From positions 977,829 through 1,041,828 of the forward strand of contig JARFIW010000835.1 of assembly GCA_036346225.1 (NCBI GenBank): a stretch of 64,000 bases of DNA, written 5' to 3'. The stretch is from Platerodrilus igneus (lineage: Eukaryota; Arthropoda; Insecta; Coleoptera; Lycidae). The notes beneath the pieces were generated by a model. It was given only the letters and a program-made list of their open reading frames with translations, searched no databases and was not told the origin of the DNA. Of the stretch, positions 18,661 to 47,578 are shown piece by piece (positions within the stretch are counted from its first letter, which is position 1; every line of letters begins with the position of its first letter). Both the position numbers and the translations under genes were made by a program.

Positions 18661-18661
<1 letters not shown>

Positions 18662-21996: not shown

Positions 21997-22430
21997 ATGA
22001 CGGAAAAGGATGTTTATCCTAAAAAGAAATTTATGGGGCATTTAACAGCTATCTACGAAGAAAGTTCGACCTGTTTGTGTCCGCTAGGCATGGTGTTAAA
22101 GCTAAGCTTCCGTTTTCTCTGGAAAGCACTAACAATATGGGCCAGGGAGTAAAAGAAATCATCGGAAAAAAGACCTCGAAAGCATTAATAAAAAATTCCA
22201 AAATCCTATATCTGTTCCGTACAAAGCGGCACTAACAGATGTTAAGTTGGAAACTTTATTGGAAGAACTACCAGATATATTATATGGATTCCAAAAAGAT
22301 TATTACTATCTATTTGACATGGATGTAACCCAAAATTTTGCTGGCATATTTAGCAAGATGGATATGTGTAATTATTTAACTACAAACCATAATCAACGAA
22401 CTTCGTTCGTTTATGAAATCGATTTGTCGT
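21997..22430 (+). pseudogene. Polinton P1: uncharacterised gene remnant (gene X)
   Basis: Across two frames the plus strand reads as protein: MTEKDVYPKKKF near 22.0 kb, then LRRKFDLFVSARHG, FSLESTNNMGQGVKEIIGKK, KAALTDVKLETLLEELPD, and YYYLFDMDVTQNFAGIFSK, ending near a GTCT/GTCC microsatellite. At least one frameshift and a lost base near 22,205 break it. I do not recognise the family. It stands just before gene A in the same direction, so I place it in P1, though it has no copy in P2 to prove this. Confidence 0.45.
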
Positions 22431-22470
22431 CCGTCTGTCTGTCCGTCTGTCCGTCCGTCTGTCCGTCCTA
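22424..22470. repeat. (GTCTGTCC)n microsatellite
   Basis: GTCT and GTCC tetramers alternate over about 47 bp at the end of the gene X remnant. The following 330 bp to about 22,800 are GC-richer, with runs of C, and match nothing else in the window. They may be a separate insertion. Confidence 0.85.
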
Positions 22471-22822
22471 GGCCTTTCTAATGGTCGGACATCAATGTGT
22501 GATACATCAATCGATTCAGCTCGGTGTCCTGAGCTTAAGTTTTGATGTCAGTTGAAATCGGGCCACGGGGACGCCGTGCCCCCGCGATATTCCGTCGGGA
22601 AAATTAAAATTTCAAATAGGTCCAAAATTAATGTGCGATACATATTTGGACTCCCCTAACATAGCTGAGTCGAAATATGGTACCCCCCACAAAATCTGAC
22701 CACGGATACCCGACCCCCCCGGGGAATTAATTTTTATTTTATCTGAATACTTATAACTATTACAACATAATAATTTTAATTTCTTTAAATTGTTTTAAAG
22801 TAAGTTTACATTTGGAAGTTCG

Positions 22823-23560
22823 TTGCGACAATGCCTTGCATTTTCAACTTGTTTTTGTTATAAGGGCGAATACGAGGAAAACTGCAATATTATAGTTGAC
22901 AACGATAAAACTATGGAAATCGATTGTTTAAAATGGCTAACAACCAATGCAAGAATTAAGATATACAACAAATTTGTGTGTCAGATAACAAGTCCTAGTG
23001 TTAATAAACAACTTGGAAATCATATACCAAATTTTTTACGTTGTCCAGATGCACGTTTAAGGGAAACAGTCGCGTCTACTTTGACTAAAGAACATGGTAT
23101 TAGGCGATTGGAGGCGAGAATATACAACTGTACAGTTGGAAACTATGTCAGTGCGGAACAGGTGTATAATCTCTTAAAAAACTGTTTAACCTTATTGGAA
23201 AACAGTAAGTTATACTTCCTAAAGGCGCCAATGTACTCGGTACCACTTGCCAAAATGTGGAGTAAGCTATCGGACAAGCTACAAAATAGCTACTGTTTAG
23301 TCTATAATAACCTACTAAAGTACGAGTGTTGGGGGAATAGCAATACAAAAAAATTGACGGGCTTGCAAATTAATTTGTCCGAAAAAATCAGAGGAAAGGG
23401 ATAAATTGATAAAGTATGTGCTTTCGGCTTTTAGTTTTAACTATATACCTATAAATTATTAGAGATAGTAGAGGAGGAAGACAGCCAAGATAAAATAAAA
23501 ATCTTACACAAGTGCTACATTAAAGCAGGTAGTATACGGGTGTCCCAAACTGAGTAGGAT
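22823..23560 (+). pseudogene. Polinton gene A, uncharacterised, P1 copy
   Basis: An open frame to 23,404 encodes 193 aa with no membrane segments and several hydrophilic helices (CNIIVDNDKTMEIDC, LAKMWSKLSDKLQNS, TKKLTGLQINLSEK). After a stop or frameshift the same gene goes on with IVEEEDSQDKIKILHKCY at about 23,465-23,520. That tail recurs at 32.84-33.02 kb (minus), next to 34.76 kb, and at 41.5-41.7 kb, always in Polinton sequence. It is therefore a Polinton-linked gene. I cannot assign a function. The frame breaks and truncation show decay. Confidence 0.6.
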
Positions 23561-23754
23561 AGCATGGGTGTCTTTCTTATTATTAATGATAGAGATCTGC
23601 TTAAATGAGCAAAGTTGTGTCATTTGGATAGCTTATTTAAATTCCGCATAGATACATTCGAAATTCCAAACGGTTTAGAAATTATTTAAAAAAAACTGAA
23701 AACTGCCAATTTCTTCGAAGTCGAATATTTTTGTTATAATAAAAGATACAAAAA

Positions 23755-24215
23755 AATTACAACCTATAACGGCCCCATATTCCCAAAAGTGGTAGACATG
23801 CGACTACGCAGCAATGAGTGGGAGAATAAGGATTCTCTCCAATATCGACAAGAAGAAGTCGATTAAGCTAACAAGCTACGTATGCAGGATATAGTGGGAA
23901 AGCAGTAATTAAAAGTTTGTCATAAGCTGCAAGAATTACACGAAGGAATGGATCTGGTTGTCGGTGGAATCAAAGATTGTAATATAGAGACAAGCTTCGG
24001 TACATTTTACAATTTGAAAACCAAGACGGTCTCTACGTATCAAACTATTGGCTAGAAAAGGAAATAGAGGGCTTGGGTGTCGATTTAAATTTTAAGCTGC
24101 GAATAAAATTAGATAAAATTAAAACCACTCTCAACAAACATAAAGAAAGGACTGTTTTCTGTATATAACTTTGTATTAAAATTAAGTTTAAATGGCTGCA
24201 TGCTTGGCATTAAAT
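23755..24215 (+). pseudogene. Polinton gene B, P1 copy, degraded
   Basis: The translation follows gene B of P2 (37,781-38,488) from the TYN..IFPKVVDM block on: NEWENKDSLQYRQEEVD, LQELHEGMDLVVGGIKD and the C-terminal end all recur. There are at least two in-frame stops and a frameshift near 23,980, and the first third is missing. The downstream non-coding sequence (to about 24,300) also matches that after the P2 copy, showing that gene B and its 3' flank have stayed together. Confidence 0.7.
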
Positions 24216-25257
24216 ATTTTTAAATTTTGTTACGTATAATGTCAAAATAAAAATTTTAGAATAGTATGACATTGCTCTTTATTTATAAAAGGCTATGTGT
24301 TACGTGCCAATTTCGGCACTAAACATTCCTTAGCTTAGTTTTGATGTGCGGAAATTTCGCGCCACAAATTCAAAAGACTTGGCGTGTATTTCCGTCACGT
24401 CAGAGTGCGTTTGCGCCAGATCGCGCGACGCGAGTGGCGGGAGAAGAAGAGTGGTTGGGTTTTCGGTAACGTATCTTTACCTTTTATTTATGTAGATCCT
24501 TGCTTTTGCTTATCTTTGTTTGTCGTCCTTATACCTGTTCCTTATTCGATCCCTACATAGGTAGAGGTAATTTGTAAGCAGCCTGCCACGACCCTAGACG
24601 AACGAATCCTGGGAGCAACTGCGACCGCCGTAGCTGGTCGGAGCGCTTTGGAAGGGCGCTAGGCGTACCTTCCGTTAATTATCTTAAAGGGGGCTCCAGC
24701 CATCTTGAAGGACGCTATCCTGTGGGACGCCATCCTTGGCGTACTTTGTGGGAGGCGTACCCTCCGTTAATTATCTTAAACGGGGCTCCAGCCATCCTGA
24801 AAGACGCTATCCTGTGGGACGCCATCCTTGGCGTACTTCGTGGGAAGCTGGACCTATTTATGTGAGTACCTTATTGTCTATACTGCATTTGTAATGTTTA
24901 TTATAATATTTATGGCGTAATTGCGCAATTAAATTTGTTTATTGTGTGACGTCATTAACAGATGGGCGCGCTAAAATCTGTAACCAAGATAAGGGTTACC
25001 ATCTGCTGGTGCGTTACGTAATCTTGCGCTTGAGGGATTGTAACTTTAACTTTTAAATTGTAAGATATGACGTCACCAAAAAATAGTAGTCACGCAGAGA
25101 AGGGTGCGCATGGGCAAGGGTGCGCATAGGTAAGGGTGCGCATGGCAAAGGGATGTGTTTGGGCGTACACGATGGAAGCGGAAGTTAAGTCACCAAGCAT
25201 CTAATTCTTATTTGAGTGGTATTGAGTACTTGCCGGTGTATATTCCGGAGTAGAAAA
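24216..25257. other. Non-coding P1 sequence with a GC-rich foreign block
   Basis: The first 80 bp and the GGGTGCGCATGGGCA repeats at 25,100-25,150 match the corresponding place in P2 (38,480-38,640). The roughly 750 bp between (24,305-25,060), including a two-copy 92-bp repeat, have no counterpart in P2 and are clearly richer in GC. They look like a separate insertion or a regulatory block. No ORF is supported. Confidence 0.5.
24661..24844. repeat. 92-bp tandem duplication
   Basis: Unit one runs 24,661-24,752 and unit two 24,753-24,844, each starting AGGCGTACC(C/T)TCCGTTAAT. They differ at only a handful of positions, so the duplication is recent relative to the decay around it. Confidence 0.8.
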
Positions 25258-25380
25258 TACGATTTGTACACGCAGCTTATTAATAAAATTAGTTTATCGA
25301 GCGAAGATGACAAGCGTTACGTCATACCTGGAAGTGTATTCACCTACGCATGGGGACATAAAGATATGAGATACTGGTAT
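25258..25380 (+). pseudogene. Extreme C-terminus of a polymerase-like Polinton gene
   Basis: The plus strand reads LYTQLINKISLSSEDDK followed by RYVIPGS and WGHKDM. The same ending is seen at 27,733-27,957. The KI(A/S)LS..DDKR motif near the end resembles the tail of Polinton family-B DNA polymerases. The preceding 60 bp match the piece at about 39.70 kb in P2, so fragments have been shuffled. Confidence 0.45.
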
Positions 25381-25797
25381 ATATTTGTATAGATTGTGAA
25401 AATCTATTGTATATATTAGTTTTAAGATTCTATAATTTTTAAGTTCTTCTCCCACCTTTCCTTCTTCCAAATCCTTCCTGCTTCTATCCTGGTGGACAGA
25501 GTATACGTTTTATCTGCATGTGGTGTTCGCTGGACACGGCGGTTTTAGATTTCTTAAGAAATGGTTGGATAAAGCATATGCCTTGAATAACGAAAAAAAG
25601 GTTTTAAATGGAGTTAAATATAGATGGGCAAAAATTAGAGGTTTGAGTCTTTAAAATGCGTATCTTTGTAAGGGGTGGTCCTATTTAAAATCTATTTACA
25701 AATTTGGACTCCCTAGAAAAATCTAATATTAGTTGATACCAAACAAGTTATATTTATCTTAAAAGAGTGACTACCTCGCGGATAATAAACACAATAT

Positions 25798-25948
25798 ACC
25801 ACTTGTCAACAAAAAAGTTGTAGGAAAATTCAATGACGAATTTAATGAGGATCTAGTATTAGAGTTTGTTGGTAGTAGGGCTAAGTCCTACTGTATTATA
25901 AGCAAGAAAGACACGATTAAAAAGATTAAAGAGTCTCGCGAAGTGTAG
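25798..25948 (+). pseudogene. Family-B DNA polymerase C-terminal fragment (Polinton), P1 copy
   Basis: The translation gives VGKFNDEF then VLEFVGSRAKSYCI and DTIKKIKES. This is the late-polymerase pattern G-x-F/M-K-DE ... EFVGLR(A/S)K-Y ... K-x-K-G-V of protein-primed Polinton polymerases. Two more copies lie in the P2 arms (34,548-34,680 minus and 39,058-39,215 plus) with the same 150 bp of upstream sequence. The palm motifs are absent, so this is only a fragment. Confidence 0.55.
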
Positions 25949-25949
25949 T

Positions 25950-27732
25950 TAAGAATATTGTAACAAATACGATTTTCTGCTATTTAAATATACGCTTTTG
26001 TTCAATACACCTATTCATTAAATATTAAGTTTCTATAGAAACCATATATTACGAATTCATACATAGTGCCCCATCTACACTAGAATAGTCAAAGTAAACT
26101 TTAAGTGCTCTTCTATTTGTTTGTATCTTGATACAATATTTCCTTTCCCGGCGCATGCTTGAATAATTAACATTGCCTCGTGGTCAAGCTCCATTTTGAT
26201 ATCAGCATGTAATCCGAATACAAGTGTTATCGAGGGCCTGCAACCTGGGACATACCGTCCCAGAGGAAAGTAAGGCGGTGTCAACGGATACCATGTATTC
26301 ATTTTTAGTTGTAGCATTGACCTAAGATAGTTGTAAATACATTTCTACGGAAGGTAAATAATTCACAAACTTACCTTTAAATTCATTTTTCCCGTTTCAT
26401 TTCAGCGTAAGTATTTAACGTTCCAAGTATTTAACGTTCCAAATATTTAACGTTCCAAGTATTTAATGTTCCAAGTATTTAACGTTCCAAGTATTTAACG
26501 TTCCAAGTATTTAACGTTCCAAGTATTTAACGTTCCAAGTATTTAACGTTCCAAGTAGTTAACGTTCCAAGTTTTTAACGTTCCAAAGTTTTTAACGTTC
26601 CAGAGTTTTGGCGTACTAAAGTTTTAACGTTGCAAATATTAAGTAGCCAGTATCAAGTTTTAGATTTTAGCTTTTTAAAGTTTTGGAGCTTCTCGTTTCA
26701 AGTTTTAAGTATTAAAGTAATGGAAATTATGTATTATACTAAACAATTGTTTACCGTATGGCAAGTATGAGACTGAAGTAAAGTAAAAACACGTATTAGA
26801 TTCTTTTGGAAATTGGTTGAGTTTTAGATGCAGTTTTAATTGTTGCTAGACAAAAGAGTGGAAATCCCCACAAATGATTGATTAGTGTGGAGGTTAAGTC
26901 CGGACACCTGCGTCAGCTGCACACCACTACAAAAGTAAGAACGCAGATGTTTTTAACAAAAAAGGAACAATCCGGCCGCTACGCAGATATCCAGCGGTGA
27001 GTCATCCTCCATTTTATACCTATATTCTTTTAAGAACATTCATTTAAGATGTACAAATAATTTTCGAAGAAACTATATATGTTTATTTAAATTTAATTTA
27101 CGAAATTTTTGTGAAGGTCTGATAATCATTTAAATTGATACACGTAAAATTTAGTTCAAAATTTAGTATTTGAATAATGCATAAATGACCTCATTATTTT
27201 CAAGGTATTATTTCTATAAGATAATTTTGAAGTTACAAAGTTATATTAAAATGTTTGCATAACTATAAACATGTGATACAATAAGAATTGTTTGCCAAAT
27301 TATAGTGTATAACATATTTTTACAGTACACCTTAAGTACAGCTTAATGCCTACAATAAGTATTTTTTAAGCTTTGATTCTATTAAAGATATCTATTAAAA
27401 ATATAGTTCTATAATATACAGAAATAATTTTTGAGCATTTAATTTGATTCTTGTAAACTGAACAGGATCCTATTCAAGTATCAAGTATCAAGATACGGTG
27501 GCGTCCAATAAAATTTCTTTCTTTTTATCGTATACCATCCTACGATCCTAGCTCATAGCTCTGCCCTAAGTTGAAGAAGCTTAGCTGGCTGGAAGATCTC
27601 AATAGAGGAACCTTTTTCTCTCAAAGCTATTTAACATCCTCTTTACCCTGGGTTTGAACGTTAAACAGGAACCCCTCGTAATCCATCGAGGCTCTACCGC
27701 CTATAAGGTAGAGCAGACATACTATTTACCTT
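25950..27732. other. P1 interior without a supported gene
   Basis: It contains a 16-bp tandem array (listed apart) and a minus-strand 80-codon frame at 26,075-26,317 (containing FGLHADIKMELDHEAM) that I cannot place. A block at 27,530-27,725 with several short self-complementary runs (for example CTCTACCGCC...GGTAGAG) separates two polymerase fragments and may be an insertion. Confidence 0.4.
26408..26620. repeat. 16-bp tandem array
   Basis: About twelve copies of AAGTATTTAACGTTCC, almost perfect in the middle and drifting at the right end (AAAGTTTTTAACGTTCC). This is a minisatellite of slippage origin. Confidence 0.9.
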
Positions 27733-27957
27733 TTGAGGAATTTAGTATGCTACAATATTAATGTAAATAGTTTTAAGGACATTGTACATAATAATTCTGG
27801 TGCCCTTATGTATAGCATGGTGTGTTTTCGAAGTCATAAACACCAACTTTATACCCAATTAATTAATAAAATTAGATGTCGGGCGAGGATGATAAAAAGT
27901 ACGTCATTCCTAATAGTACAGCAGTCTGTTCTTGGGGGCATAAAGATATAAGTTAGG
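27733..27957 (+). pseudogene. C-terminal fragment of the polymerase-like Polinton gene
   Basis: The open frame reads FKDIVHNNSGALMYSMV, then RSHKHQLYTQLINKI. A one-base shift then gives GEDDKKYVIPNSTAVCSWGH and a stop. The pattern R(S)x2H-x-(L/V)YT..(V/I)NKI...DDK fits the very end of Polinton DNA polymerase B. It closes the plus-strand genes of P1, and the inner part of the terminal repeat begins shortly after. Confidence 0.5.
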
Positions 27958-28179
27958 TGTTAGTTATAAGTTGTATAGATAAAATGTACATAGTTTAGCA
28001 TTGATTTAACTACATAATTATGTTATGACATGTATTTAGAAATTAAAATGTAAAGCTAGGAAATTGATAAAATTTTTATTCTGTTTAAAAGTCTCTCATG
28101 TTTTTGATAAAGTGTGTTGGGTTTAGAATGTTTTACTAAAGAATATGTTTCAAATTTCTCTATAATGCTTAAGAATAAG

Positions 28180-28551
28180 ATACATTTATCCCGAAAGAAA
28201 CAAAAATAATCTTTTATATGCTCGCAAGAGGGTATGTGTGTAAAACGATAAGGGGTTGCCCCGATTTTAAATCTGTTTGCAGATTCGGATTTTGCGTAAA
28301 ACAGCAAGATGAATCCGTATCTCAAACCTCCTAAAAAGTATATGAGGTGATTAAAAAAATCAGTTGGTGAAAAATACTTAAAATGAGGGTAGTTCCCTGG
28401 GATGATGCAATCTGAAAAGTTCCTAGAAATTTGGGTAGCAGAGAAAAATCTGATATTACTTGATACTAAACAAAATACATTTATCTCGTGGGTAGAAATG
28501 TGGAGAAATATTTATCTTGCAGAGGGTGTGTGTGTAAAACAGTAAGGGGTG
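28180..28551 (+). mobile_element. P1 terminal-repeat sequence, left of the BEL insertion
   Basis: This stretch contains the subterminal repeat unit known from P2 and P3 (TTTTAAATCTGTTTGCAGATT, GATGATGCAATCTGAAAAG, TTGATACTAAACAAAATA). It ends in GTGTAAAACAGTAAGGGGTG, where the BEL/Pao element is inserted. The sequence continues without loss at 47,091 after the BEL element. The unit at 62.0 kb shows the same TAAAACGGTAAGGGGTGGGT order uninterrupted. Confidence 0.8.
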
Positions 28552-28855
28552 TGCTTATTACATTACTTCTCTTGAATAATGAATAAATCAACTAAACATC
28601 TTGAAATAACTTTAATTCTTATTGTGGACTGTATTAAAATCCAATTACATATTTTATAGAAAAATAACATGTCATAGAATACAGGACTACTCTGCCATCT
28701 TCCTTCTAGTAATAAATTAATTAATATATTTCCAAAAACCAATCGTGCTTGTTATAAAGACGAGTATAAACGAAGAGCGCCGGAAATACGTGTAAAATAA
28801 ATGGCGCACTATTTAAATTTAAAGTACGTAAAAATACTAAAGTTTAGCCTTAACA
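28552..28855 (-). repeat. BEL/Pao 3' LTR (304 bp)
   Basis: Near-identical to the 5' LTR except for a 14-bp extra piece near 28,725 and scattered substitutions. Ends are TG...CA on the minus strand. The moderate divergence between the LTRs points to an old insertion. Confidence 0.85.
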
Positions 28856-28869: not shown

Positions 28870-29340
28870 AGCGGGATACAACCTATACTAAAGAGTAACT
28901 GTACATTACTTATTAACTAATACATTGTCGAATGGTATTACACAAATCTTAGCTACAGCACGTTTTATTTTTCCACTGGCGCACTGCAATGATCCAACGC
29001 GCACTATACCATGGGCTCCAGGATGCAGCTCTAGGATTCTTCCAAGCCGCCATTTTAAATGTGGTATATTTGCTTCTTGAACCAGAACTAGGGCACCGAT
29101 TTTTAAAATGTTTTGTACATTCTGTTTTCAGTTCATACTTTTCTGCAACTCTGGTATGTATTCAGATTCCCAACGTCTCCAAAATTTCTGCAACAGTGAC
29201 TGAAGATACTGGAAACGCGACAAACGATTTTCTGGAATATGCAGAAGTGATGAATCCGGAAAAAACTGCATTGATGGACCAATAAGAAAATGACCAGAAG
29301 TGAGTGCATACAAGTACGTAGCATCAGACGACATGGGGGG
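28870..29340 (-). pseudogene. BEL/Pao integrase C-terminal region
   Basis: The minus strand translates to KWRLGRILELHPGAHGIVRV followed by a basic stretch and a stop near the LTR, the usual end of BEL integrases. Frameshifts separate it from the main integrase frame ending at 29,355. Opposing open frames over this stretch are shadows. Confidence 0.65.
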
Positions 29341-29354: not shown

Positions 29355-30299
29355 TTAAGTACTCAATATTTTCTGTAAGTTAATCTTTGTGAATTTAACC
29401 CCTCCTTCCCAAATGCCCCCAAAATGTGGAGAATTTGGTGGAATGAAATGCCATACAATTTCATCATTGGCTAGTGATTCTTGAATATTATTTTGAACAG
29501 ACTCATTTTTTAAAAATTGGCCAAGTCCCTTTAAAATAGACTGTGCACCAATAAAGTTTGTGCCATTGTCAGAAAACATACTTGATGGTTTTCCACGCCT
29601 TGCAATATAACGCCTTAGAGTGGCAAAAAAAGCTTCTGAGCTCAACTCTGTAACTAATTCTAAATGCAGTGCTTTAGTTGTAAAACAAATGAATAAAACA
29701 ATATATGCCGTTTGTGTTTTAAATCCTCTAGACTTTTTATCCCTTAAAAGAAATGGTCCTGCATAATCCACACCTGTGTTTTCAAATGTAAATGAAGCTC
29801 TTACACGCTGTTGAGGTAAGGAACCCTGTAGGTATTGAACATTACATTTAGGTTTAGCCTTTGAGCAAATAATGCATCTGTGAACAACTACTCTTACTAA
29901 GTTTCTCTCTGAAATTACCCAATATTTTTCCCTTAGTTTAGCTAACAATAGTTGTGGTCCACAGTGTAGAAGACGCTTATGCTCCGACTCTATAATTAAT
30001 ATTGTTAATTTGCTATTTTTGGGCAAAACAATAGGGTGTTTTTTATTATACTGAAAATACGATTTGTGCAGGCGCCCCCTTACACGAAAAACTTCATTGT
30101 CATCAAGAAAAGGGCTTAAAGGTAGTAGTTTGGATTTTGAATTTATTTCTCGTTTATATTTTAAACATAAAATCTCTTCATAGAATCCTTGCTCCTGAGA
30201 GAATTTAATTAATCTCAGCAAAGAGCGTTGCAACTCTTCAACAGATAAAAATCGAATTAAACGTGAATGAGGGTTTTTCAGATTGTATAAAAAGCGCAA
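29355..30299 (-). pseudogene. BEL/Pao integrase, 314-aa open segment
   Basis: The frame holds the zinc-binding H-H-C-C module (H107, H112, C142, C145 in the CIIC motif) and the catalytic triad D178 (TGVDYAGPF), D244 (MFSDNGTNF) and E298 (IWEGGVK). All key residues are present, so this domain alone could have been functional. The first ~80 residues are the connecting region after RNase H. The frame closes early at 29,355, and the C-terminal domain follows in other frames. It acts in copying the cDNA into the genome in intact relatives. Confidence 0.85.
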
Positions 30300-30355
30300 A
30301 CAATATGCAAAAACCCTTTGTAATCTGCAAACCGATAAATACTTGAAAAATAAAT

Positions 30356-30760
30356 CTAATTCTTTAGATTCTGTAAAATAACAATTAGTTTTTGCTTTTT
30401 TAATTCTGGCATCTCAATATTTATTTGATTGGGTTGAGGTGGCCATTCTGACATACTTTTTTGCAGCCAAGGAGGTCCATGCCACCAAAGGTCAGAGTAA
30501 AGCAATGTACATGGAGTAACCCCCCGCGATGCTAAGTCAGCAGAATTGTTCTCAGACTTAACATGACGCCAATTAACGATATTGGTGATTCTCTGAATTT
30601 CTGCGACCCGATTGGCACAAAGGTATTCCATCGCCAAAGCCTGATCTTCCTCACACAGTTTTACCATCCTGTACATTTTGGCTATATCCGCTGTGACAAC
30701 ATAAGGATAAAGTCTAAACCTTACTAGAAGAGCGAATAATTCATCCTAAACCACTGGCCC
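30356..30760 (-). pseudogene. BEL/Pao RT start fused to RNase H end (internal deletion)
   Basis: Just upstream the minus strand reads PYVVTADIAKMYRMVKL, the start of the RT palm with its first catalytic Asp. It then runs directly into CANRVAEIQ, NWRHVKSENNSADLASRG and WWHGPPWL, the end of the RNase H region. The RT motifs LPQG and YVDD and most of RNase H, several hundred residues in a normal BEL pol, are missing. The junction lies within one open frame, so a single deletion explains it. Confidence 0.75.
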
Positions 30761-37583: not shown

Positions 37584-37597
37584 TGGAAGAAAAAGAC

Positions 37598-37780: not shown

Positions 37781-38488
37781 ATGCATTTGTGGTTAGTAAA
37801 AAAAGACTCTTTTAGTTATCTAGGCGTTCTTGCGGAAAAGGATGGTACTAAACCCGTATACTTTTTAAAAGGTAATTCTAAAAACGTATTTATCAAAATG
37901 GTAGATAACAAAGACGAACTAAGGAATGCGGGTTTCGTAACCTTGGCGTACACCACACGCAAAGGGGTTCCGCTAAACATTGTATATTTACCTAGTAAAG
38001 AACCTTTCGGATCATTTAAAACCGAGGGTCTTACAACCTATAACAACCATATATTCCCAAAAGTGGTGGACATGCAACTACGTAATAGTGAGTGGGAGAA
38101 TAAGGACTTCCTCCAATACCGACAAGAAGAAGTCGATCAAGCTAACAAGATACGTATGCAAGATATAGTGGGAGAGCCGCGATTAAAAGATTGTCACAAG
38201 CTGCAAGAATTACACGAAGGAATGGATCTGGTTGTCGGTGGAATCAAGGACTTTCTATATAGAGGCAAAATTCGGCACATTTTACAATTCGAAAACCTAG
38301 ACGGTCTCTATGTATCAAACTATTGGCTAGAAAAGGAGATAGAGGACTTGGGTGTCAATTTAAATTTTAAGCTGCGAATAAAATTAGATAAAATTAAAGC
38401 CGCTCCAAATAAACATAAAGAAAGGACTGTCTTCTGTGTATTACTTTGTATTAAAATTAAGTTTAAATGGCTCCATGCTTTGCATTAA
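37781..38488 (+). CDS. Polinton gene B, uncharacterised 235-aa frame
   Basis: This is the longest open frame inside P2, and a degraded copy in P1 (23,755-24,215) is colinear with it, so it is a real Polinton-linked gene. It is soluble and mixed alpha/beta, without a signal peptide or membrane segment. Blocks include FSYLGVLAEKDGTKPVYFL, TRKGVPLNIVYLPSKEPFG, MDLVVGGIKDFLYRGKIRH and NYWLEKEIEDLGVNLNF. The real start is probably upstream in another frame (one-base shift near 37,800). A short piece (KTEGPTTYNEHIFPK) is duplicated behind the polymerase fragment in both arms. Function is unknown. Confidence 0.6.
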   Translation: MHLWLVKKDSFSYLGVLAEKDGTKPVYFLKGNSKNVFIKMVDNKDELRNAGFVTLAYTTRKGVPLNIVYLPSKEPFGSFKTEGLTTYNNHIFPKVVDMQLRNSEWENKDFLQYRQEEVDQANKIRMQDIVGEPRLKDCHKLQELHEGMDLVVGGIKDFLYRGKIRHILQFENLDGLYVSNYWLEKEIEDLGVNLNFKLRIKLDKIKAAPNKHKERTVFCVLLCIKIKFKWLHALH

Positions 38489-38845: not shown

Positions 38846-39057
38846 AGCGAAAAAGGGTTCTAAGGATTGAGTTAAATAAAAATTTTCAAAAATTAGAGAT
38901 TTGGGTCTTTAAACGGCATAACTTTGTATGGGGTGGTCCTATTTAAAATCTATTTACAGGTTTGCGCTCCCTAGAAAAATATAATATTAGTTGATACCAA
39001 GCAAAATATAGTTATCTTAAAAGAGTGACTACCCCGCGTATAATAAATACAATATAA

Positions 39058-39310
39058 CACTTGTCGACAAAAAAGTTGTAGGGAAATTTAAAGACGAATT
39101 TAATGGGGGTCCAGTATTAGAATTTGTTGGTAGTAATGTTAAGTCCTACTGTATTGTAGGCGAGAAAGACGCGATTAAAAAGATTAAAGGGGTCTCACGA
39201 AGTGTAGTTATGTAAAACCGAGGGTCCTACAACCTATAACGAGCATATATTCCCAAAATGGGTGGGCATGCAACAACGCAACAGTGCTTGGGAGAATAAG
39301 GATTCTCTCC
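39058..39310 (+). pseudogene. DNA polymerase B C-terminal fragment with gene B piece, P2 right arm
   Basis: LVDKKVVGKFKDEFNGGPV, LEFVGSN.KSYCIVGEKDA and KKIKGVSRSVVM are followed without a gap by KTEGPTTYNEHIFPK, a piece of gene B. The same fusion is present in the left arm (34,450-34,680), so it predates the duplication that made the arms. Stops follow. Confidence 0.6.
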
Positions 39311-39892
39311 AATAAGAAATTAAAGTTTCCATGTACGTAGCACCAGTCATTGAGAAATGGTAGAAATGTGGAACCTATAAAGGCGATTAGTAATTGTGGT
39401 TTTAGAAAAATAGTAGTTTTCTTGGTCTAAATAAAATAGCTTAGACTGATTAATGTATATGGTTGCATATTCTCGTACACATCCACAAACATCTGCTTAC
39501 GCCCATATACGGACATGGCGATGCCGGTAGTTTTTGTTTAACAAATAGTAGGAAAGATACGTTAGGTGTTAGTGTGGAAGCCCATTGTCGTTTGAAAAAT
39601 GATTGAAAATTATCAAAACGGTAGTCAGTCGAAGTTTAAGTTAGATAGATAATTGACCGAGGTTTTTCTACCTTTTACGAGGGAATCGGGAGTTGACGGA
39701 CATCGAGCATCTAATTCTGTATTTGGGCGATATAGAGTACTTGCCGGTTCTAGAAATCATTACGTGCTACCAACCGCTATGCGGAAGATTTGGTTCTAGG
39801 AAATGAGAAACCTACGAAAGCATAGAATACTCGGTATTAATGCTGATTGGTTTAGTGACCGCGTTTGTGCACTCTTCGAGTGTCGTCGGCAA
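39311..39892 (+). other. Coding-like arm sequence up to the LINE insertion
   Basis: A plus-strand frame reads DIEHLILYLGDIEYLPVLEI and YESIEYSVLMLIGLVTAFVH. Its mirror copy lies at 33,840-34,060, and a partial one at about 25,190. It could be a fragment of another Polinton gene. It is broken by stops, and the frame fuses by chance with the LINE ORF. Confidence 0.35.
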
Positions 39893-40928
39893 AATCTCCA
39901 AACTTTCTAAAGTTGGACTCACGTTATCTTTCCTAAGATTTTTTGAATCATACTTAAGTAATCGTAAGCTGTGCGTGGAATATCATGGTCATCAGTCGTT
40001 TGACTTTGTAGCTTCATCCGGTGTACCTCAAGGCTCCGTTCTTGGGCCTTTGTTATTTATAATCTTCATTAATGACATCGTTCGTCATTTGTCTTGTTGT
40101 TCTCTTCTCTATGCTGATGATTTAAAATTGTTTACATCTATATTATCAACAGATGACTGCAGGAAACTTCAAAATGATCTAGCTAGCTTGTATTATTGGT
40201 GTAGTAACAACAATCTACCTTTAAATATCTCGAAGTGCTTTACCGTTAGCTATACACGTAAGATTAATCCTATTTCTTACACATACACCATTGAGAATGT
40301 TTCAATTAGTAAGTGTAGCGTTTTAAAAGACCTCGGTGTCAAATTTGACTCAAAGCTTACCTTTATTGAACACATTACAACCATTCAAAAAGAAGCGTAC
40401 AAAAATTTGGGATTTGTACTCAGAAATGGTTATCATCTTTCTCAATCTATAACTATCTCTGCCCTGTATAATGCATTTGTGCGCAGTAAGATGGAATATG
40501 CCTCTGTTGTTTGGAGCCCAGGATATGAAGTACACAGTTGGGTGTTAGAGAAAATTCAGAGACGATACGCTAAGTTTCTGTGGTTTAAGTCTGATGGTAC
40601 TTATCCTCAGCGTGGCCTTCCTCGGGATGTTCTTTTAAATAGGTTTGGATTAAACGATCTACGTACACGTAGAAAATTCTACTCAGTCAGTTTGTTGTAT
40701 AAGTTACTTAATAATCTGATTAACTGTCCCAATTTATTAGGTCAACTTTACTTTCATGTACCCAACTTTAAAACTCGCTTAGTGTCTTTATTTTATGTAA
40801 AAACACCTAGAACAAATATATTGAAATTTTCTCCTGTTAATGTTATGGTTCTAAATTATTTTGATATTCGGGACAATTTTGATTTATTTTGTGACTCTTT
40901 GCCACAATTAAAAGCTGGTATGCTATAG
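39893..40928 (+). pseudogene. LINE reverse transcriptase, C-terminal two-thirds, open frame
   Basis: RT motifs in order: FFESYLSNRKLCV, SSGVPQGSVLGPLLFIIFIN (motif B), LLYADDLKLF (catalytic YADD intact), NNLPLNISKC, LKDLGVKFDSKLTF, then the thumb and the usual C-terminal region (YASVVWSP, IQRRYAKFLW). The frame has no stop up to 40,928. The endonuclease and motif A are missing through 5' truncation. The first 17 or so codons of the frame from 39,840 belong to Polinton sequence, not to the LINE. Confidence 0.85.
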
Positions 40929-41068
40929 ATATAGGGACTTATTATAATTTGTGTTGCTGCATATGAAATGTACCTTATTTTGTTATTTTTTTTTTGGTAT
41001 ACATCCTGTAATTGGCTTGTCTGTCGGATGTATTTTTTTCTATAAATAAATAAAATAAATAAATAAAT
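39893..41068 (+). mobile_element. 5'-truncated jockey-type LINE
   Basis: The insertion starts within the RT domain and ends in an AAATAAATAAA tail. The left arm of P2 gives the empty site (reads GTCGTCGGCAATCTTCG on the matching strand), so both borders are set to within a few bases. A clear target duplication cannot be resolved because of the A-rich tail. The open frame suggests this is one of the youngest insertions in the window. Confidence 0.85.
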
Positions 41069-41103
41069 CTTCGCTTGTTTCCAAAGAAAATATTCAAACC
41101 TAC

Positions 41104-41365
41104 TGTTTTTTACGTCAAATGTTAATAATAAATTAACTAACAAATGCACGTCGGACTGTATATAATTATTTATTTAGTTTAAGAGCATAAGATTACAAAT
41201 ATAGAGATTGTTGTAGACACGAGTGCGTCTACACTTTAGAGAAGCTAACGAACAAGTGTCGTTGTTAAAATGCACCCTCTTCACATATTAAAGGCGGGCG
41301 TGGTACAGTCTTATACAAAAGTAACGTATACACACAACTACAAATTAAATATAAAGTATTGAACA
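41104..41365. mobile_element. Solo LTR (262 bp) with 5-bp TSD CCTAC
   Basis: It begins TGTTTTTTACG and ends TATTGAACA, i.e. TG...CA, flanked by CCTAC at 41,099-41,103 and 41,366-41,370. The left P2 arm has one CCTAC and no insertion at this place. An internal short palindrome GTAGACACGAGTGCGTCTAC is present. The family is not known to me; five base pairs fits copia, gypsy or BEL. Confidence 0.8.
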
Positions 41366-41514
41366 CCTACCATTTTCTAAAATATTACGTAGAAGTTATT
41401 TAAATTAAATCGCTTTATTAGTAAGTATTAGTAAGTATTCTGTATTGTATATATTAGTTTTAAGATTCCGTAATTTTTAAGTTTATCGCCCACCTTTCCA
41501 TGTAAATTATTTGG

Positions 41515-41690
41515 AGATAGTAGAGGAGAAAGATAGCCAAGATAAAATAAAAATCTTACACAAGTGCTACATTAAAGCAGGTAGTACATATTTTACACAA
41601 TCTGCAACACCATATTCTACAATTCCAAAAGGAATAGTCATTTAGGAATTGGGGTTGATAGATACGCCTAACATTCGTCTAGCTAAAAGC
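41515..41690 (+). pseudogene. Gene A tail fragment, P2 right arm
   Basis: The mirror copy of 32,838-33,022: DSQDKIKILHKCYIKAG, then TPYSTIPKGIVI and LGLIDTPNI. A stop lies after GIVI in both arms. Confidence 0.65.
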
Positions 41691-42489
41691 CTATCTTTAA
41701 AATTTGAAAAAAATATATATGTAAAACAGCGCATTACTTTGGAAAAATTAATGTTTTAAAAATACAATCAGAAGCAATAGCAAAATACACATTAATTGGT
41801 GTTTGCAAATAAATTCAGTTCTATTTTAATAAAAAATGTAGACTTACCTTAAATTTTTTTAAAAAGATTTACAGGAAAAATCACTACACAATACGAAAAT
41901 TTCAACGAACTTACACAAAGCATGCAAAACGAATAGGTTTTTACTAATCAGATCGCGTTTTTATGCGGTTTGAAATAATTAAGCGTTAATCGATCCGTAT
42001 TACAAGATGAAGTTTGCATTTCTCCTAGTCGAGGTCGTAATAGAAAGTACATTGTGTACACCAGCAATTATACGGGAATTTCCTAATGGATGGCATTGAG
42101 CATATCTATTGTATTTCTCAAATCATATAGCCGCTAGTTAATAAAAACGAAAGGTTTACGCTACTTTCACTTTACATCACATAATTGTAAAGCAATTAGT
42201 TTGTAAGACGAATGTATTTTCTAACTATTTAGCATTGAGCATGTAATTATGTTTGTGACGTAGTAATTAACAATGTTAAAACCAGAAAAATTTTAAAAGT
42301 CATGGGTTTTTGCGATATTCTGAAAACAGCACATTACTGTTTGAAAAAAAGGTTTTAAATAATAAACACTTATGGCTTATAAAGAACTCATTTCTAAAAT
42401 CCCCACAGTTTTAGATTTCTAGGGAAATGGTTGGTTAAAGCATATGTTATAGATGAGCAAAACAATTTAAAGAGGTTTGAGACTTTAAA

Positions 42490-43740
42490 AGTGTAAAATG
42501 GTAAAAGGTGATCCGATTTTAAATATGTCTGCAGATTCAAATTCTGCATAAAGTTCTAGACTAACAGGATGTGTCGTATATCTAAAAAATTCATAAGAAC
42601 GACAGTAAAATCGCTATCAGCAAAAAAATCTTAAAATTGGGGTAGCTCTTTGGGGGATGATGCAATCTAAGAAATTCCTAGAGATTCGCGTAGCTTAGAA
42701 AATTCTAATACTAATTGATACCAAACAAGATAGGTTTATCTCGAAAAATGTAATGGGTAGTCAAAGAAAACTATTTGGTTCAAATGTGGGAGCAAAGAGC
42801 AAAATTTAGAGGTTTAGGACTTTAAAGGGTTATAACATTGTAAGGAGTGGACGGATTTTAAATCTGTTTGCAGATTCGAAATGTGCGTAAAATTCTAGAC
42901 TAACAAGATGCGTCATATGGTTAAAAAATTTATAAGGGTAAAAAAAAATCTTAAAATTGGGGTAGCTCCCTGGGGAATGATGCAATCTAAGAAATTCCTA
43001 GAGATTTAAGTAGTTGAGAAAAATCTAACATTAATTGATACCAAACAAGATAGATTTATCTCGAAAGATGCATTGGTTAGTCGAAGAAAACTATTTGTTA
43101 TGTTATAGAGCAAAGGGCAAAATTTAGAGGCTCGGAGTCTTTAAAAGTGTAACTTTGTAAGGGGTGGTCGGATTTTAAATCTGTTTTAGATTCGAAATGT
43201 ACGTAAAATTCTAGACTAACAAGATGTGTCACATGGTTAAAAGATTTATAAAGACGATCATAAAGTCGCTACCAGCAGAAAATCTTAAAATTAGGGTATC
43301 TCCCTGGGGAATGATGCAATCTAAAAAATTTCTAGAGATTCGGGTAGCTGAGAAAATTCTAATATTAATTGATACCAAACAAGATAGGGTTATCTCGAAA
43401 GATGTAATGGGTAGTCAAAGAAAACTATTTGGTTCAGATGTGGGAGCAAAGAGCAAAAGAGCAAAAGTGTAACTTTGCAGGGGGTGGTTTTATTGCAAAT
43501 CTGTTTGTAGATTAAAATTCTGCGTAAAATTCTAGACTAGCAAGATGTGTCACATGGTTAAAAAATTTATAACGATGGTCAGAAAATCGCTACCGGCAAA
43601 AAATCTTACAATTGGGTAGCTCCCTGGGTGACGGCGCAATCTAAAAAATTCCTAGAAATTCGGGTAGCTGAGAAAATTCTAATAATAATTGATACCAAAC
43701 AAGATAGGGTTATCTCGAAAGATTCAATGGCTAGCCGAAG
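42490..43740. repeat. Four subterminal repeats of about 320 bp, P2 right arm
   Basis: Units begin near 42,490, 42,820, 43,140 and 43,462. Each contains GGATTTTAAATCTGTTTGCA, GATGATGCAATCTAA, a TTGATACCAAACAAGATAG block and TATCTCGAAAGATG. The left arm has about one unit, P3 about two, so the number varies between ends. Confidence 0.85.
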
Positions 43741-43759
43741 AAAACTATTTGGTTCAGAT

Positions 43760-44013
43760 GAGTGTGGAAATGAGGGATTGTCCTCATTTCCGCCTTATGG
43801 AAATATACATGTAACTGTGTGTGGAAATGTGGGATTTCTCCACATTTCCGCCTTATGGGAATTTACATGTAAATGTGTGGAAATGCGGTTCCACCACCAC
43901 ATTTCCACCTCCACCTCCTCATTTCCACCTTATGGGAATTTACATGTAAATGTGTGTGGAAATGTGGGATTCGGGTGGAAATGAGGCGGTAGAACGTCAC
44001 TAAACCTCCTACT
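43760..44013. repeat. P2 terminal 250 bp: TTACATGTAA-based repeats
   Basis: Three to four copies of a roughly 55-bp unit carrying CTTATGGGAATTTACATGTAA and GTGTGTGGAAATG precede the terminus. TTTACATGTAAA is itself palindromic. The left end mirrors this at 31,497-31,750, and P3 has one unit at 61,340-61,385. Confidence 0.8.
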
Positions 44014-44019
44014 TGTAAT
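44014..44019. repeat. Right target-site duplication of P2 (TGTAAT)
   Basis: An exact copy of 31,491-31,496. Removing P2 and one hexamer restores the BEL protease reading across the site on the minus strand (LPKIT joins the TEQVSANPF block), which proves the insertion point. Confidence 0.9.
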
Positions 44020-44049: not shown

Positions 44050-44394
44050 AGCAAATGCCTTTACATTTGATTTTACTATTAATTCGGTTTTATGATGTAT
44101 ATTCGAAATACTTCCATTTATTCAAAAAACCAAACAATCTACGTTTGTCTTCGGCAAGTTTAACAAATCTACAAAATCTATAGTCACCAAATTTGACATA
44201 CTTCCAGAATCAAGCAAAACTCTACAGTCATGAAATTTACAATGGCTGTCGCTAACCTTAACTCTAGCTGTAGACAGCAAAACCTGAGATTCTTGCCATT
44301 GTTCGTAGGCTTCAAAAAAGACCGGAAGCAACAAAGACGGAAGATTTACGTTAGCAACTGCATTGTTTCCACTTGCTGAAGCTTCTTTGACCAC
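44050..44394 (-). pseudogene. BEL/Pao aspartic protease (DUF1758-type)
   Basis: The minus-strand frame holds VLLSTARVKVSDSHCKFHDC then VLLDSGSMSNLVT, the D-S-G active site of BEL proteases, and LPKTNVDCLVF. It stops at 44,122, and further coding runs to the P2 border in broken frames (up to LILPKIT). It releases the pol enzymes from the polyprotein in intact relatives. The catalytic Asp is kept. Confidence 0.85.
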
Positions 44395-44725
44395 TGGCGC
44401 CCCAGGCCTTTGCTTTTCATACTCACCAATGATAGCTTAGCTGCAGATAACATATCAAAATACAAATTTTCAAAATGCTCACGTGCTTCTTCAGATTGTT
44501 CTTGGGTTTCAAGAAGCTTCTTAACCTCAGATTTAATTGATAGTTGAATCGCTTGGAATTCCTCTCACAAAGGTTCAACTTTAGCCGACCTAAATTTCAG
44601 ACATTCTACAATTAAATCATCTAAATCATTAACCTTACTTTGTGTATTAATTAAAAATAGTTCAAACCTGCTTAACTGCCCTTGAATGGCAGATCGTTTT
44701 GTTTTTAATGAAGTTTTGTCACCCA
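44395..44725 (-). pseudogene. BEL/Pao Gag N-terminal part
   Basis: From an ATG at 44,725 the minus strand gives MGDKTSLKTKRSAIQGQLSR, FELFLINTQSKV, FQAIQLSIKSEVKKLLE and REHFENLYF, the coiled-coil N-terminus normal for BEL Gag. One in-frame TGA lies near 44,574. The central Gag domain and zinc knuckles are missing: the sequence passes within about 110 codons to the pre-protease region, so a deletion of more than a kilobase happened here. Confidence 0.75.
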
Positions 44726-46800
44726 TTTTGCATAAATTGTAAGACTACTCAAACAAATAATGAAATTAACCAAATACTGTAATTTCGCAGACAAAGGAAA
44801 TACGTAATTCCACTAATTGCGTCAAAATACAAGAGGTACAAACGAGTATGGACTTACTTTTTATGTTGGTTTGACTTACTATGTTTAATATTTTCAACAC
44901 CAATCATAAAAATAGATTATGAAAGGTCGAAGGTTGTTACGTTTTTTTTTTGCACGCCTCACGTTGGTTTTTTGGGGACCTAAACGTTGTGACGTCACTG
45001 TAACTTATTTTTCTTAACGGGCGCCAGTGAACAAGTCTTCCGACATAGCTAGGGGTCTATTCCTGGGTAGAGCAATGAGAAGTGGGGGGGGGGGAAGTCG
45101 AATTCTGTTTGCAAACCAAAGTTACGCTAAATCAAATAGGCGCCACCATGTCCTGAGATAATTACGATAATTGCAAAGCACAGTTCTAAAGGCGGACGTG
45201 GAAACCCAAAGATAAAATGATCGCCTTCGTTAACAAAAACCTGTCTTATTAAGATAAGACGCAGCTCCTGTAAGAAACTGTAAAGATTAAATAAATAAAA
45301 AAGTAGAACACCATTTGTGTCCTATAAAAAAATATAAAGAAATAATAAAAAAATATTTCCAATATAATATTGGCATCAAATTATTACTCAGAAAATTTTT
45401 AGCTTTATGTAATTAGATTTGATCGCATTTGACCAACATAAAAGTCTTAGATTTTGAACTAAATGTTTACTAAAAAAAACTCTTTTAAAATATCGGTACT
45501 TGTAACAAAAAAAATTGTCATAATCAACTACATCAAAGTTAAAGTTTTAACTTTCCTTTTTTCTTTCATTAATCAACCAACTGCACTTTAAACATGAACT
45601 TGTTATTTAAATTAAAGTGATAATGATTTGTAAGCATAACACAGTGAATTAAATTCTAACCTGGGCAGATCTTTTCAGGTGGATTACTAATTACTAGAAC
45701 CTAACATAATGAGAATTTGAACTTTCATATTTACGTTTAATAATCTATGTATAGGTAAAGCTGATCACAAAAATAGGCATGTTTGTTTAAATTGCATTAC
45801 AGCTGCTCAAAGCATTTGCTTCCAAGACAACATCTGTCAACGTGCAAAACAGAAAAATATGACGTCGAAAACATACGTTGAACTTATCGAAGGTTCATAT
45901 GGAACAAAGCATGTTATTATAGAAAGCTAATTCGACAAAATTTCGTTTTACAGCTTATAAAACCAGCTCAACAATTGATTGAAATTTACACAATTTACGT
46001 GTACTAAACATAATAGCAAAATTATGTACTCTAATCTTTAAACACATGCAAAAAAAAATCTTATTACTAATTACGAACCAAAACTGCTTTAGCCGCTTCT
46101 CGACAAACTGAGACGGGATTTCCGTTCTTCAAGCAAAGTTAACAGCGTTTCCAATTTGATATGACTGCATCCAAATTAACATCCATAATTTCTTATCACA
46201 CAAATTTCTTACTAGGCAAATTTCAAATCGACTGTTCCTAAATAACGGTAATTCTTTGGATCCTAGATGACGAATTATATTTGTTCCATTCTTTATTGTC
46301 GCATCCTACATTGTCGAATTATATACTGTTGCATTCTACATTGTCGAATTATATTTTGTCGAATTATATTTTGTTGCGCTAAATAAATTACCTCAAATTA
46401 CATTAATTCGTATAATATATACTTTACCAACCGTTATTAGAAGATATCCCAACGACTAATAGTTGATGCGAAGGTTGCCAGCCTCCAGCCGAAAATACAT
46501 CTTAACACAGCTGTTGCAGGCGGCCGACTGTTTGTCGAAACCAGAGCCGAGCGGTCGCGCCGTCAGAGGGGGGAACACGAAACAATCAAATAGAGATGTA
46601 CTTGGAAATAGCTTTATGCGACACAGATATATTAATATAATTAGATCCCTAATTAACAATGCACGCTTAGCGCATTATTCTTGTAATTCAATGCAATTAA
46701 ATTACGACTGAAAAATAAAAATGTTACAAGATCGCCACATGTACATCCAATTTTGGCGGTTTCAACGTGCTCACTCATCAATTCAGCGAAAATAAACCAT
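44726..46800 (-). other. BEL 5' untranslated region, about 2 kb
   Basis: The sequence lies between the primer site at the 5' LTR and the Gag start. It is longer than usual for BEL leaders and may contain further insertions. I see small tandem repeats of ACATTGTCGAATTATA type at 46,300-46,375, a G9 run at about 45,088 and a GC-rich patch at 46,520-46,580. No gene is supported. Confidence 0.5.
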
Positions 46801-47090
46801 GTTTATTACATTACTTCTCTTGAATGTTGAATAAATCAACTAAAGATCTTGAAATAACTTTAATTCTTATTGTGGACTGTATTAAAATCAAATTACATAT
46901 TTTATAGAAAAATAACATGTCATAGAATACAGGACTACTCGGCCATCTTCCTTCTAGTAATAATTAATTAATAGCCAATCGTGCTTGTTATGAAGGCGAG
47001 TATAAACGAAAAACGCCGGAAATACGTGTAAAATAAATGGCGCACTATTTAAATTTACAGCTACGTAAAAATATTAAAGAAGCCTTAACA
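46801..47090 (-). repeat. BEL/Pao 5' LTR (290 bp) and adjoining primer site
   Basis: The minus strand starts TGTTAAGGCT at 47,090 and ends ...AATAAACA at 46,801. The next bases inwards are TGGTTTATTTTCGCTG, which starts with the TGG complementary to a tRNA CCA end, as a minus-strand primer site should. GGGTG at 47,091 repeats the bases before the 3' LTR. Confidence 0.85.
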
Positions 47091-47578
47091 GGGTGGTTAA
47101 ATCTTAAATCCGTTTGCAGATTCGAATTCTCCGTAAAATTTCAGACGAATTTAATGTGTCGCATGGCTAAAAAATGTATAAGGATGGTCAGAAATCGCTG
47201 TTGGTAAAAAATCTTAAAATGAGGATAGCTTCCGGAGGTATGATGCTATCTAAAAAGTTCCTAGAAATTCAAGTAGCTGAGAAAAATTTTATATTAATTG
47301 ATACCAAACAAAATAGATTTATCTCGTGGGTGGAAATAGTTACTCGAAGAAAACTATTTGGTTCAGAATGTTATTGGTAAAAATTCTTAAAATGAGGGTA
47401 AAAATCCCACAAGGAGGTCTATAAGGAGGGAGCAAGGAGGAAAGCCCCAGTAAATGTCCGAAGGAGGTTCACTTCCAAAGAAGTTACATGTAAATTCCCA
47501 TAAGCAGGTGGATCTGGTGGATCCTATGGGTGAATCCCATAAGGTGGATCTGTGCTTGGATCGGCCAATTCTACTACT
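47091..47578 (+). mobile_element. P1 terminal repeat, right of the BEL insertion
   Basis: It continues the subterminal unit cut at 28,551: TAAATCTTAAATCCGTTTGC, the GATGCTATCTAAAAAGTTCC block, TTGATACCAAACAAAATAG, then TTACATGTAAATTCCCATAA near the terminus. A plausible end is ...TTCTACTACT at about 47,578 (ACT terminus). The matching left end of P1 was not found, so the outer border is tentative. Confidence 0.65.

What the first reader, a model, noticed from the sequence alone, without database searches (positions are those of the whole stretch)
21997..47578. Four-level nest: LINE/SINE/LTR inside Polinton P2 inside BEL/Pao inside Polinton P1
Each level is fixed by target duplications and restored sequence. 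BEL/Pao (28,552-47,090) has GGGTG on both sides and splits the subterminal repeat of P1. P2 (31,497-44,013) has TGTAAT on both sides and splits the BEL protease-RT reading. P2 carries a jockey-type LINE, an RNase H LINE, a SINE and a solo LTR, all with visible empty sites or duplications. A Polinton of one family thus lies inside a retroelement that lies inside an older Polinton of the same family, which gives a relative clock for two waves of Polinton activity.
Basis: seen in the sequence. Interest (0 to 1): 0.9.

Follow-up and report, generated by a model that had tools for sequence, protein, structure and literature searches.

The report
Polinton-like element nested inside retrotransposon
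In this stretch of DNA a Polinton-like transposon sits inside a BEL-type retrotransposon, which in turn sits inside the remains of a related Polinton-like transposon, so the stretch likely records the order in which they jumped; nesting of this kind is ordinary, though this one is unusually easy to read.

Summary
The core of the nest is real. P2 (31497-44013) has inverted ends and TGTAAT on both sides. It lies in an LTR element (28552-47090; GGGTG on both sides; DUF5641 and integrase, so BEL/Pao type), which splits a subterminal repeat of P1: joined 60+60-base flanks match a P3 unit better than 500 of 500 control joins. P2 carries a LINE and a solo LTR (empty sites in its other arm), and an RNase H LINE and a SINE between three perfect copies of one 15-mer. 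Not established: P1's limits (no left end; homology reaches 47512, not the proposed 47578), a full Polinton identity (no PolB or integrase found), and 'two waves'. Divergences agree in order (P2 arms 2.8%, BEL LTRs 4.8%, P1-P2 11.4%), but the P2-BEL step is not significant (P=0.07). Added: P2's inverted arms reach 3.3 kb and hold a slice of a gene; P1 and P2 hold broken parts of one uncharacterised protein family seen in Hemiptera; a third copy, P3, begins at 61302. The source genome could not be searched.

The parts
22023..28551 (+). P1, left part: broken gene (22023-24165) and subterminal repeats (about 28235-28551); left limit unknown
   Evidence: tblastn of family proteins; self-BLAST to P2 and P3
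47091..47512 (+). P1, right part: rest of the split repeat unit (to 47367) and a near-terminal array motif (47470-47512); the proposed end at 47578 is unproven
   Evidence: self-BLAST; flank join; end test
28547..28551 (+). BEL target duplication GGGTG, left copy
47091..47095 (+). BEL target duplication GGGTG, right copy
28552..28855 (-). BEL 3' LTR (TG...CA)
   Evidence: 276 of 290 aligned bases identical to the other LTR, plus gaps
46800..47090 (-). BEL 5' LTR (TG...CA)
28909..29127 (-). BEL pol C-terminus, DUF5641
   Evidence: Pfam E=9.6e-17; a second DUF5641 piece at 29131-29379, E=7.2e-7
29358..30413 (-). BEL integrase piece (Integrase_H2C2, rve)
   Evidence: Pfam E=4.9e-8; rve 4.5e-4, below its cut-off
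44125..44436 (-). BEL piece right of P2, possible aspartic protease
   Evidence: Peptidase_A2B E=0.11, below cut-off
31491..31496 (+). P2 target duplication TGTAAT, left copy
44014..44019 (+). P2 target duplication TGTAAT, right copy
31497..34759 (+). P2 left inverted arm
   Evidence: three main paired pieces 97.1, 97.6 and 96.5% identical
38972..44013 (-). P2 right inverted arm, with three more subterminal repeat units than the left (42787-43760) and two insertions
34744..38440 (+). P2 gene remnant: lacks its start, interrupted by LINE and SINE
   Evidence: tblastn with P0007, P0014 and P0017
32856..33032 (-). slice of the same gene in the left arm
   Evidence: tblastn, P0006 residues 405-463
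41502..41678 (+). slice of the same gene in the right arm
   Evidence: tblastn, P0006 residues 405-463
34962..37328 (-). RNase H LINE in P2's gene
   Evidence: RNase_H E=1.1e-8 at 36828-37100; 15-mers at 34947-34961 and 37329-37343
37344..37583 (-). SINE, cut short at its head; shares a 30-nt tail with the LINE (28 of 30)
   Evidence: 15-mers at 37329-37343 and 37584-37598; 96% identical to 54255-54498
39893..41067 (+). LINE fragment (RVT_1), jockey type by recall
   Evidence: Pfam E=3.9e-15; empty site in the left arm
41104..41365 (.). solo LTR (TG...CA), CCTAC at 41099-41103 and 41366-41370
   Evidence: empty site in the left arm
61302..64000 (+). P3: left end of a third copy, runs out of the window
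   Evidence: AGTAGGGTATTTAGTGACG end; arm homology to P2

Best explanation
A 12.5-kb Polinton-like element with inverted ends and a 6-base target duplication lies inside a BEL/Pao-type LTR element, which lies inside a subterminal repeat of a degraded relative of that element, and this arrangement most likely arose by successive ordinary insertions. In order: a Polinton-like element P1 was present; a BEL/Pao retroelement likely inserted its cDNA into P1's subterminal repeat by its integrase (5-base duplication); P2 likely inserted into the retroelement by a retroviral-type integrase (6-base duplication), probably supplied in trans because no PolB or integrase was found in P2; then a LINE, a SINE, a second LINE and an LTR element inserted into P2, the LINEs and SINE by target-primed reverse transcription (inferred). 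The LTR element later likely shrank to a solo LTR. P2's long arms (3.3 kb on the left) likely grew by recruiting internal sequence, including a slice of a gene. Shown: junctions, duplications, empty sites, arm structure. Inferred: the enzymes, trans supply and arm growth.
For: Perfect target duplications at P2, BEL, solo LTR, RNase H LINE and SINE. The BEL flank join scores 93 against a P3 unit; 0 of 500 control joins reach it, best 82. DUF5641 and integrase domains in BEL. Empty sites in P2's other arm. LINE+SINE lie between pieces that meet at residues 493-495 of one homologous protein, P0007. Divergences agree with the order: P2 arms 71 of 2504, BEL LTRs 14 of 290, P1-P2 102 of 896. No PolB, integrase or ATPase family among the 25 of 30 families shown for 129 of 130 ORF pieces of P1, P2, P3 and 18000-21997 (the 130th is the LINE RT; the five unshown families have E of about 0.06-0.1).
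Against: P1 has no proven end; its shared segments come in a different order than in P2, and its near-terminal motif runs in the opposite sense. LTR versus P2-arm divergence differs only at P=0.07. For one of seven repeat units the flank join adds almost nothing over the right flank alone (54 versus 52). The 39893 LINE lacks a clear target duplication. The BEL reading across P2 is weakly supported. PolB and integrase may have been lost by later decay or deletion, or lie in pieces too short to score. No other genomic copies could be checked because the genome search did not complete.
Confidence: 0.85

Rival explanations
1. The nest is an assembly error: repeats shared by P1, P2 and BEL were collapsed or joined wrongly.
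For: Three related elements lie in one window and P2's arms are long, nearly identical inverted repeats, which assemblers handle badly (the last point is general knowledge).
Against: The five target duplications tested are perfect, and empty sites match the other arm or another unit; a random misjoin would not give this.
Confidence: 0.06
2. P2 inserted as a complete, self-sufficient Polinton and lost PolB, integrase and capsid genes afterwards by internal deletion, so trans supply is not needed.
For: P2's gene remnant is cut off where the left arm ends (34744-34759), which could be a deletion breakpoint.
Against: The inner arm (32 of 921 differences) is no less diverged than the outer arm (39 of 1583; P=0.17), so the long-arm form looks as old as the insertion.
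Confidence: 0.3
3. P1 and P2 are not Polintons but another class of long-arm (foldback-like) DNA transposon.
For: No PolB or rve integrase found; long, internally repetitive arms also occur in Galileo, a P-superfamily element (PMC3573991, passages).
Against: A 6-base duplication and arms of hundreds to thousands of bases fit Polinton-type elements (PMC12220804, passages); Galileo copies are described with 7-base flanks (PMC3573991, passages).
Confidence: 0.15

Closest known systems
Maverick/Polinton elements
   Same: Long inverted arms, 6-base target duplication, AG...CT ends (end rule recalled)
   Different: No PolB, rve integrase or ATPase found; 12.5 kb including about 4.1 kb of later insertions; arms carry a slice of an internal gene
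Galileo (Drosophila, P superfamily), long-arm dynamics
   Same: Arms with tandem units in varying number and arms extended by recruiting internal sequence (PMC3573991, passages, which also mention expansion of Polinton inverted repeats)
   Different: Different superfamily; 7-base duplications; some copies keep the transposase-coding sequence
BEL/Pao LTR retroelements
   Same: DUF5641, zinc-binding integrase, TG...CA LTRs, 5-base duplication
   Different: Degraded: no RT or gag domain detected in the pieces scanned; interrupted by P2
Nested-insertion chronologies (TinT, PMC3014933, passages)
   Same: Element-in-element insertions give relative age
   Different: TinT uses thousands of events; here there is one case

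Membership tests
Maverick/Polinton (P2) | Terminal inverted repeats | tested here: met
Maverick/Polinton (P2) | 6-base target duplication (typical of rve integrase) | tested here: met
   TGTAAT both sides; definition from PMC12220804 passages
Maverick/Polinton (P2) | Protein-primed PolB | tested here: not met
   not among the 25 of 30 Pfam families shown for 129 of 130 ORF pieces of P1, P2, P3 and 18000-21997
Maverick/Polinton (P2) | Retroviral-type integrase | tested here: not met
   same limits; the rve hit seen lies in BEL
Maverick/Polinton (P1) | Two inverted ends with target duplication | tested here: inconclusive
   no left end found in the window; right-end motif to 47512 but no match at 47578 itself
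BEL/Pao | DUF5641 at the C-terminus of pol | tested here: met
   E=9.6e-17 and 7.2e-7
BEL/Pao | Integrase with zinc-binding domain | tested here: met
   Integrase_H2C2 E=4.9e-8; rve 4.5e-4, below cut-off
BEL/Pao | LTRs TG...CA and short target duplication | tested here: met
BEL/Pao | Reverse transcriptase and protease | tested here: inconclusive
   no RVT in the BEL pieces scanned; protease E=0.11 only
Polinton-like non-autonomous element moved in trans | Several copies sharing the same internal structure | not testable with these tools
   The genome search did not complete (10 identical requests)

The most novel reading that the evidence does not exclude
P2 is a foldback-type, gene-poor Polinton: its arms grew to over 3 kb by swallowing a slice of an internal gene before it jumped, and it was moved in trans by the integrase of full-length relatives, as MITEs are moved by their parents.
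Probability: 0.4. Interest if true: 0.45.

Novelty: new member of a known kind. Interest (0 to 1): 0.3.

Why it matters
The stack gives a clear relative order for three element types in one place and a testable example of a long-armed Polinton-like element that seems to lack its own enzymes. It also shows a LINE and its tail-sharing SINE flanked by the same 15 bases, and links an uncharacterised hemipteran protein family to this element family. Nesting itself is common, so the general interest is modest.

Tried and rejected
Whole-genome copies: the genome search 'own' was asked ten times with the same request and was always busy. Relatives in viral contigs: P0001, P0003, P0017, the P3 zinc-finger ORF and the BEL integrase gave none; the end pattern gave 6 loci whose only match to the window was 53 bases at 4026-4078, outside the nest, taken as chance. 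Two structure predictions were poor (mean pLDDT 30.0 and 42.7), so no fold search was run. PHROGs (best E 0.012), PDB (best 0.46) and Rfam (none) gave nothing useful for the P1/P2 gene or the nest. Chance for the 15-mer: with up to 2 mismatches 0.30 matches expected, 3 found (all perfect), 1 of 100 shuffles had 3 or more; the 15-mer was picked after seeing it. Papers on shared LINE/SINE targets: one search answered, nothing on the point in its listing.

My first test of P1's right end looked at one orientation only and found nothing above shuffles. On re-checking, both orientations were tested: 47470-47512 does match the near-terminal array of P2 and P3, in the opposite sense, and the last 60 bases do not. 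The report follows.

Left out of the pooled divergences: 31497-32048 versus 43463-44013 (units not equivalent; K2P 0.100), the 83-base slice 23452-23534 (96.4%), the overlapping left-arm pair 25714-25951 (88.2%), P1 subterminal-unit pairs (78.6 and 80.4%) and the P2-P3 pairs (85.9-95.7%), all; and the 77-base arm piece 33744-33819 (92.2%). The tests treat sites as independent.
Full report
What was checked. The finding claims a four-level nest. I read the junctions, compared the window with itself, scanned ORF pieces for protein families and measured divergences. The source organism is not known to me; the named related proteins come mostly from insects, chiefly Hemiptera.

P2. The element at 31497-44013 (12,517 bases) begins AGTAGGAGG and ends CCTCCTACT, with TGTAAT on each side. 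Identical 6-mers at this spacing occur at 28 of 51,471 places in the window. The arms are far longer than the terminal block: left 31497-34759 pairs with right 38972-44013 in pieces, the three main ones 97.1, 97.6 and 96.5% identical and a 77-base one 92.2%, apart from insertions, a left-only stretch (33099-33743, partly shared with P3) and three extra subterminal units on the right (about 42787-43760). The left arm's single unit lies in the piece that matches the innermost right unit (97.6%), while right units differ from each other by about 19-21% over most of their length (7% in one 180-base part), so loss on the left is likelier than recent gain on the right (inference).

What sits in P2. 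(a) An RT-bearing LINE fragment, 39893-41067 (RVT_1 E=3.9e-15); the left arm shows the empty site, with at most about 2 bases of duplication. The name 'jockey-type' is recalled. (b) A solo LTR, 41104-41365, TG...CA, CCTAC on both sides, empty site in the left arm. (c) A LINE with RNase H on the minus strand (34962-37328; E=1.1e-8) and (d) a SINE cut short at its head (37344-37583; 96% identical to 54255-54498, where I see a tRNA-like head by eye). TGGAAGAAAAAGACA stands perfectly at 34947, 37329 and 37584, on both sides of each. LINE and SINE share 28 of 30 tail bases. The plain reading is that the second of the two used the nick site that the first had duplicated (inference).

The interrupted gene. 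P1's ORF and P2's ORF looked unrelated at first, but both match one protein family of up to about 575 residues: P0014 from the psyllid Cacopsylla melanoneura and P0017 hold both halves. Further members are in Laodelphax, Cinara and Semiaphis, with a distant one in Mytilus; the second half also matches a Diabrotica protein. No consistent Pfam, PHROGs or PDB relative was found (of 22 members, at most 2 share any family, best of those E=0.019; a Cinara member carries a trypsin domain and one other member has a single E=7.9e-4 match or that same one does, which the table does not tell; PDB best E=0.46; PHROGs best 0.021). In P2, pieces on either side of the LINE-SINE pair match P0007 residues 424-495 and 493-521/556, so the pair lies inside the gene. 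P2 lacks the first part of the gene; the match begins at 34744, where the left arm ends. A slice of the gene (P0006 405-463) lies in both arms. P1 matches from about P0007 residue 95 on, is interrupted at about 22,400-22,850, and lacks about 200 residues of the middle (P0014 243-444). Both copies are broken.

BEL. LTRs 28552-28855 and 46800-47090 agree at 276 of 290 aligned bases, with 21 gap columns in 5 gaps, of which the last 6 columns lie beyond the LTR end, and have GGGTG on both sides (by chance 91 of 45,451). DUF5641 (E=9.6e-17; 7.2e-7) and zinc-binding integrase make it BEL/Pao type. The claim that P2 splits a protease-RT reading is only weakly supported: a sub-threshold protease match right of P2 (E=0.11), no match for the 195-aa piece to the left, and no RT in the BEL pieces scanned (the two RVT matches lie at 55788-56189 and 56135-56455). 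In one search, 85 of the 113 pieces were given; some of the others had been scanned before.

BEL in P1. Both BEL flanks are parts of the subterminal repeat seen in P2 and P3. A join of 60+60 flank bases aligned across the junction to all seven units tried (scores 61, 54, 65, 53, 93, 53, 79; right flank alone 51, 52, 58, 43, 60, 48, 51), so the gain ranges from 2 to 33. Against the P3 unit the score is 93; 500 joins of the left flank with random window pieces averaged 44 with a best of 82.

P1. It is a relative of P2 (102 differences in 896 aligned bases), but not a delimited element: no left end was found in the window and gene homology starts at 22023. On the right, repeat-unit homology ends at 47367. 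Beyond it, 47470-47512 matches the near-terminal array of P2 (score 46) and P3 (38), with 0 of 500 shuffles and 0 of 500 window pieces reaching these scores, but in the sense of a left end; the last 60 bases before 47578 do not resemble the P2 or P3 end (275 and 45 of 500 shuffles score as high). So P1 probably ends near 47578 but the exact end is unproven. Its segments shared with P2 are in a different order.

P3. A third copy begins at 61302 (AGTAGGGTATTTAGTGACG) and leaves the window. Its arm has two subterminal units, and 62975-63114 is 95% identical to P2's left side.

Is it a Polinton? The paper passages seen define the class by PolB, rve integrase and inverted repeats, with 6-base duplications typical of that integrase (PMC12220804). 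P2 meets the repeats and the duplication. PolB, integrase and ATPase families are not among the 25 of 30 shown for 129 of 130 pieces of 50+ residues from P1, P2, P3 and 18000-21997 (the 130th is the LINE). I therefore write Polinton-like and do not file it as a member. It works like one at its ends.

Clock. Differences: P2 arms 71 of 2504 (2.8%), BEL LTRs 14 of 290 (4.8%), P1-P2 102 of 896 (11.4%). LTR versus P2 arms P=0.07; LTR versus P1-P2 P=0.0009. The order agrees with the nest but the inner step is not significant on its own. Arms may be kept alike by gene conversion, which would make P2 look younger. One insertion of each kind shows two events, not two waves.

Mechanism. Successive insertions explain the junctions seen. 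That P2 was moved by enzymes made elsewhere is an inference from the missing genes. The inner arm is as diverged as the outer (32 of 921 versus 39 of 1583, P=0.17), so the long-arm form is probably as old as the insertion. Growth of arms by recruiting internal sequence and varying tandem units is described for Galileo, and that paper mentions expansion of Polinton inverted repeats (PMC3573991, passages).

Verdict. A clear, mostly confirmed nest of known kinds of element; new as an instance, not as a kind. No paper describing this nest appeared in the listings of the searches.

Noticed in passing
window 61302-64000: Left end of a third Polinton-like copy, with a C2H2 zinc-finger ORF (62497-63024, minus; weak Pfam matches). 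By recall this ORF resembles the N-terminus of arthropod Polinton PolB-type proteins; untested.
   Followed up: partly
window 3752-4015 (minus): Phospholipase A2-like domain (PF08398, E=2.1e-11; parvovirus capsids in the PDB at E=0.013), as also reported in the capsid-like protein of two insect Mavericks (PMC5803895, passages). It may mark a further Maverick or parvovirus remnant.
   Followed up: partly
window 34947-37598: A LINE and its tail-sharing SINE lie in a row between three perfect copies of one 15-mer, as if one target site was used twice.
   Followed up: partly
window 22023-24165 and 34744-38440: Broken copies of an uncharacterised protein family of about 575 residues, seen in psyllid, planthopper and aphids (distant: Mytilus); its second half also matches a Diabrotica protein.
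   Followed up: partly
window 47470-47512: The near-terminal array motif of P2 and P3 stands at P1's right side in the opposite sense, which suggests a rearranged or differently built end.
   Followed up: partly
window 51481-52542: Two ORF pieces with DUF1759 (below cut-off), likely the gag of another BEL/Pao element.
   Followed up: no
window 53650-57891: Two SINE copies with tRNA-like heads by eye (about 54200 and 54860) and a LINE with RT and endonuclease pieces (55788-57891, minus; endonuclease just below cut-off); a relative of part of this region lies inverted at 3247-3762.
   Followed up: no
window 57836-59236: Tandem array with 133-base spacing, units roughly 75-90% alike.
   Followed up: no
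window 26409-26640 and 38659-38850: Short tandem arrays (16-base and 8-base spacing) inside P1 and P2.
   Followed up: no
window 22400-22850: About 440 bases interrupt the gene in P1; no target duplication was recognised by eye.
   Followed up: partly
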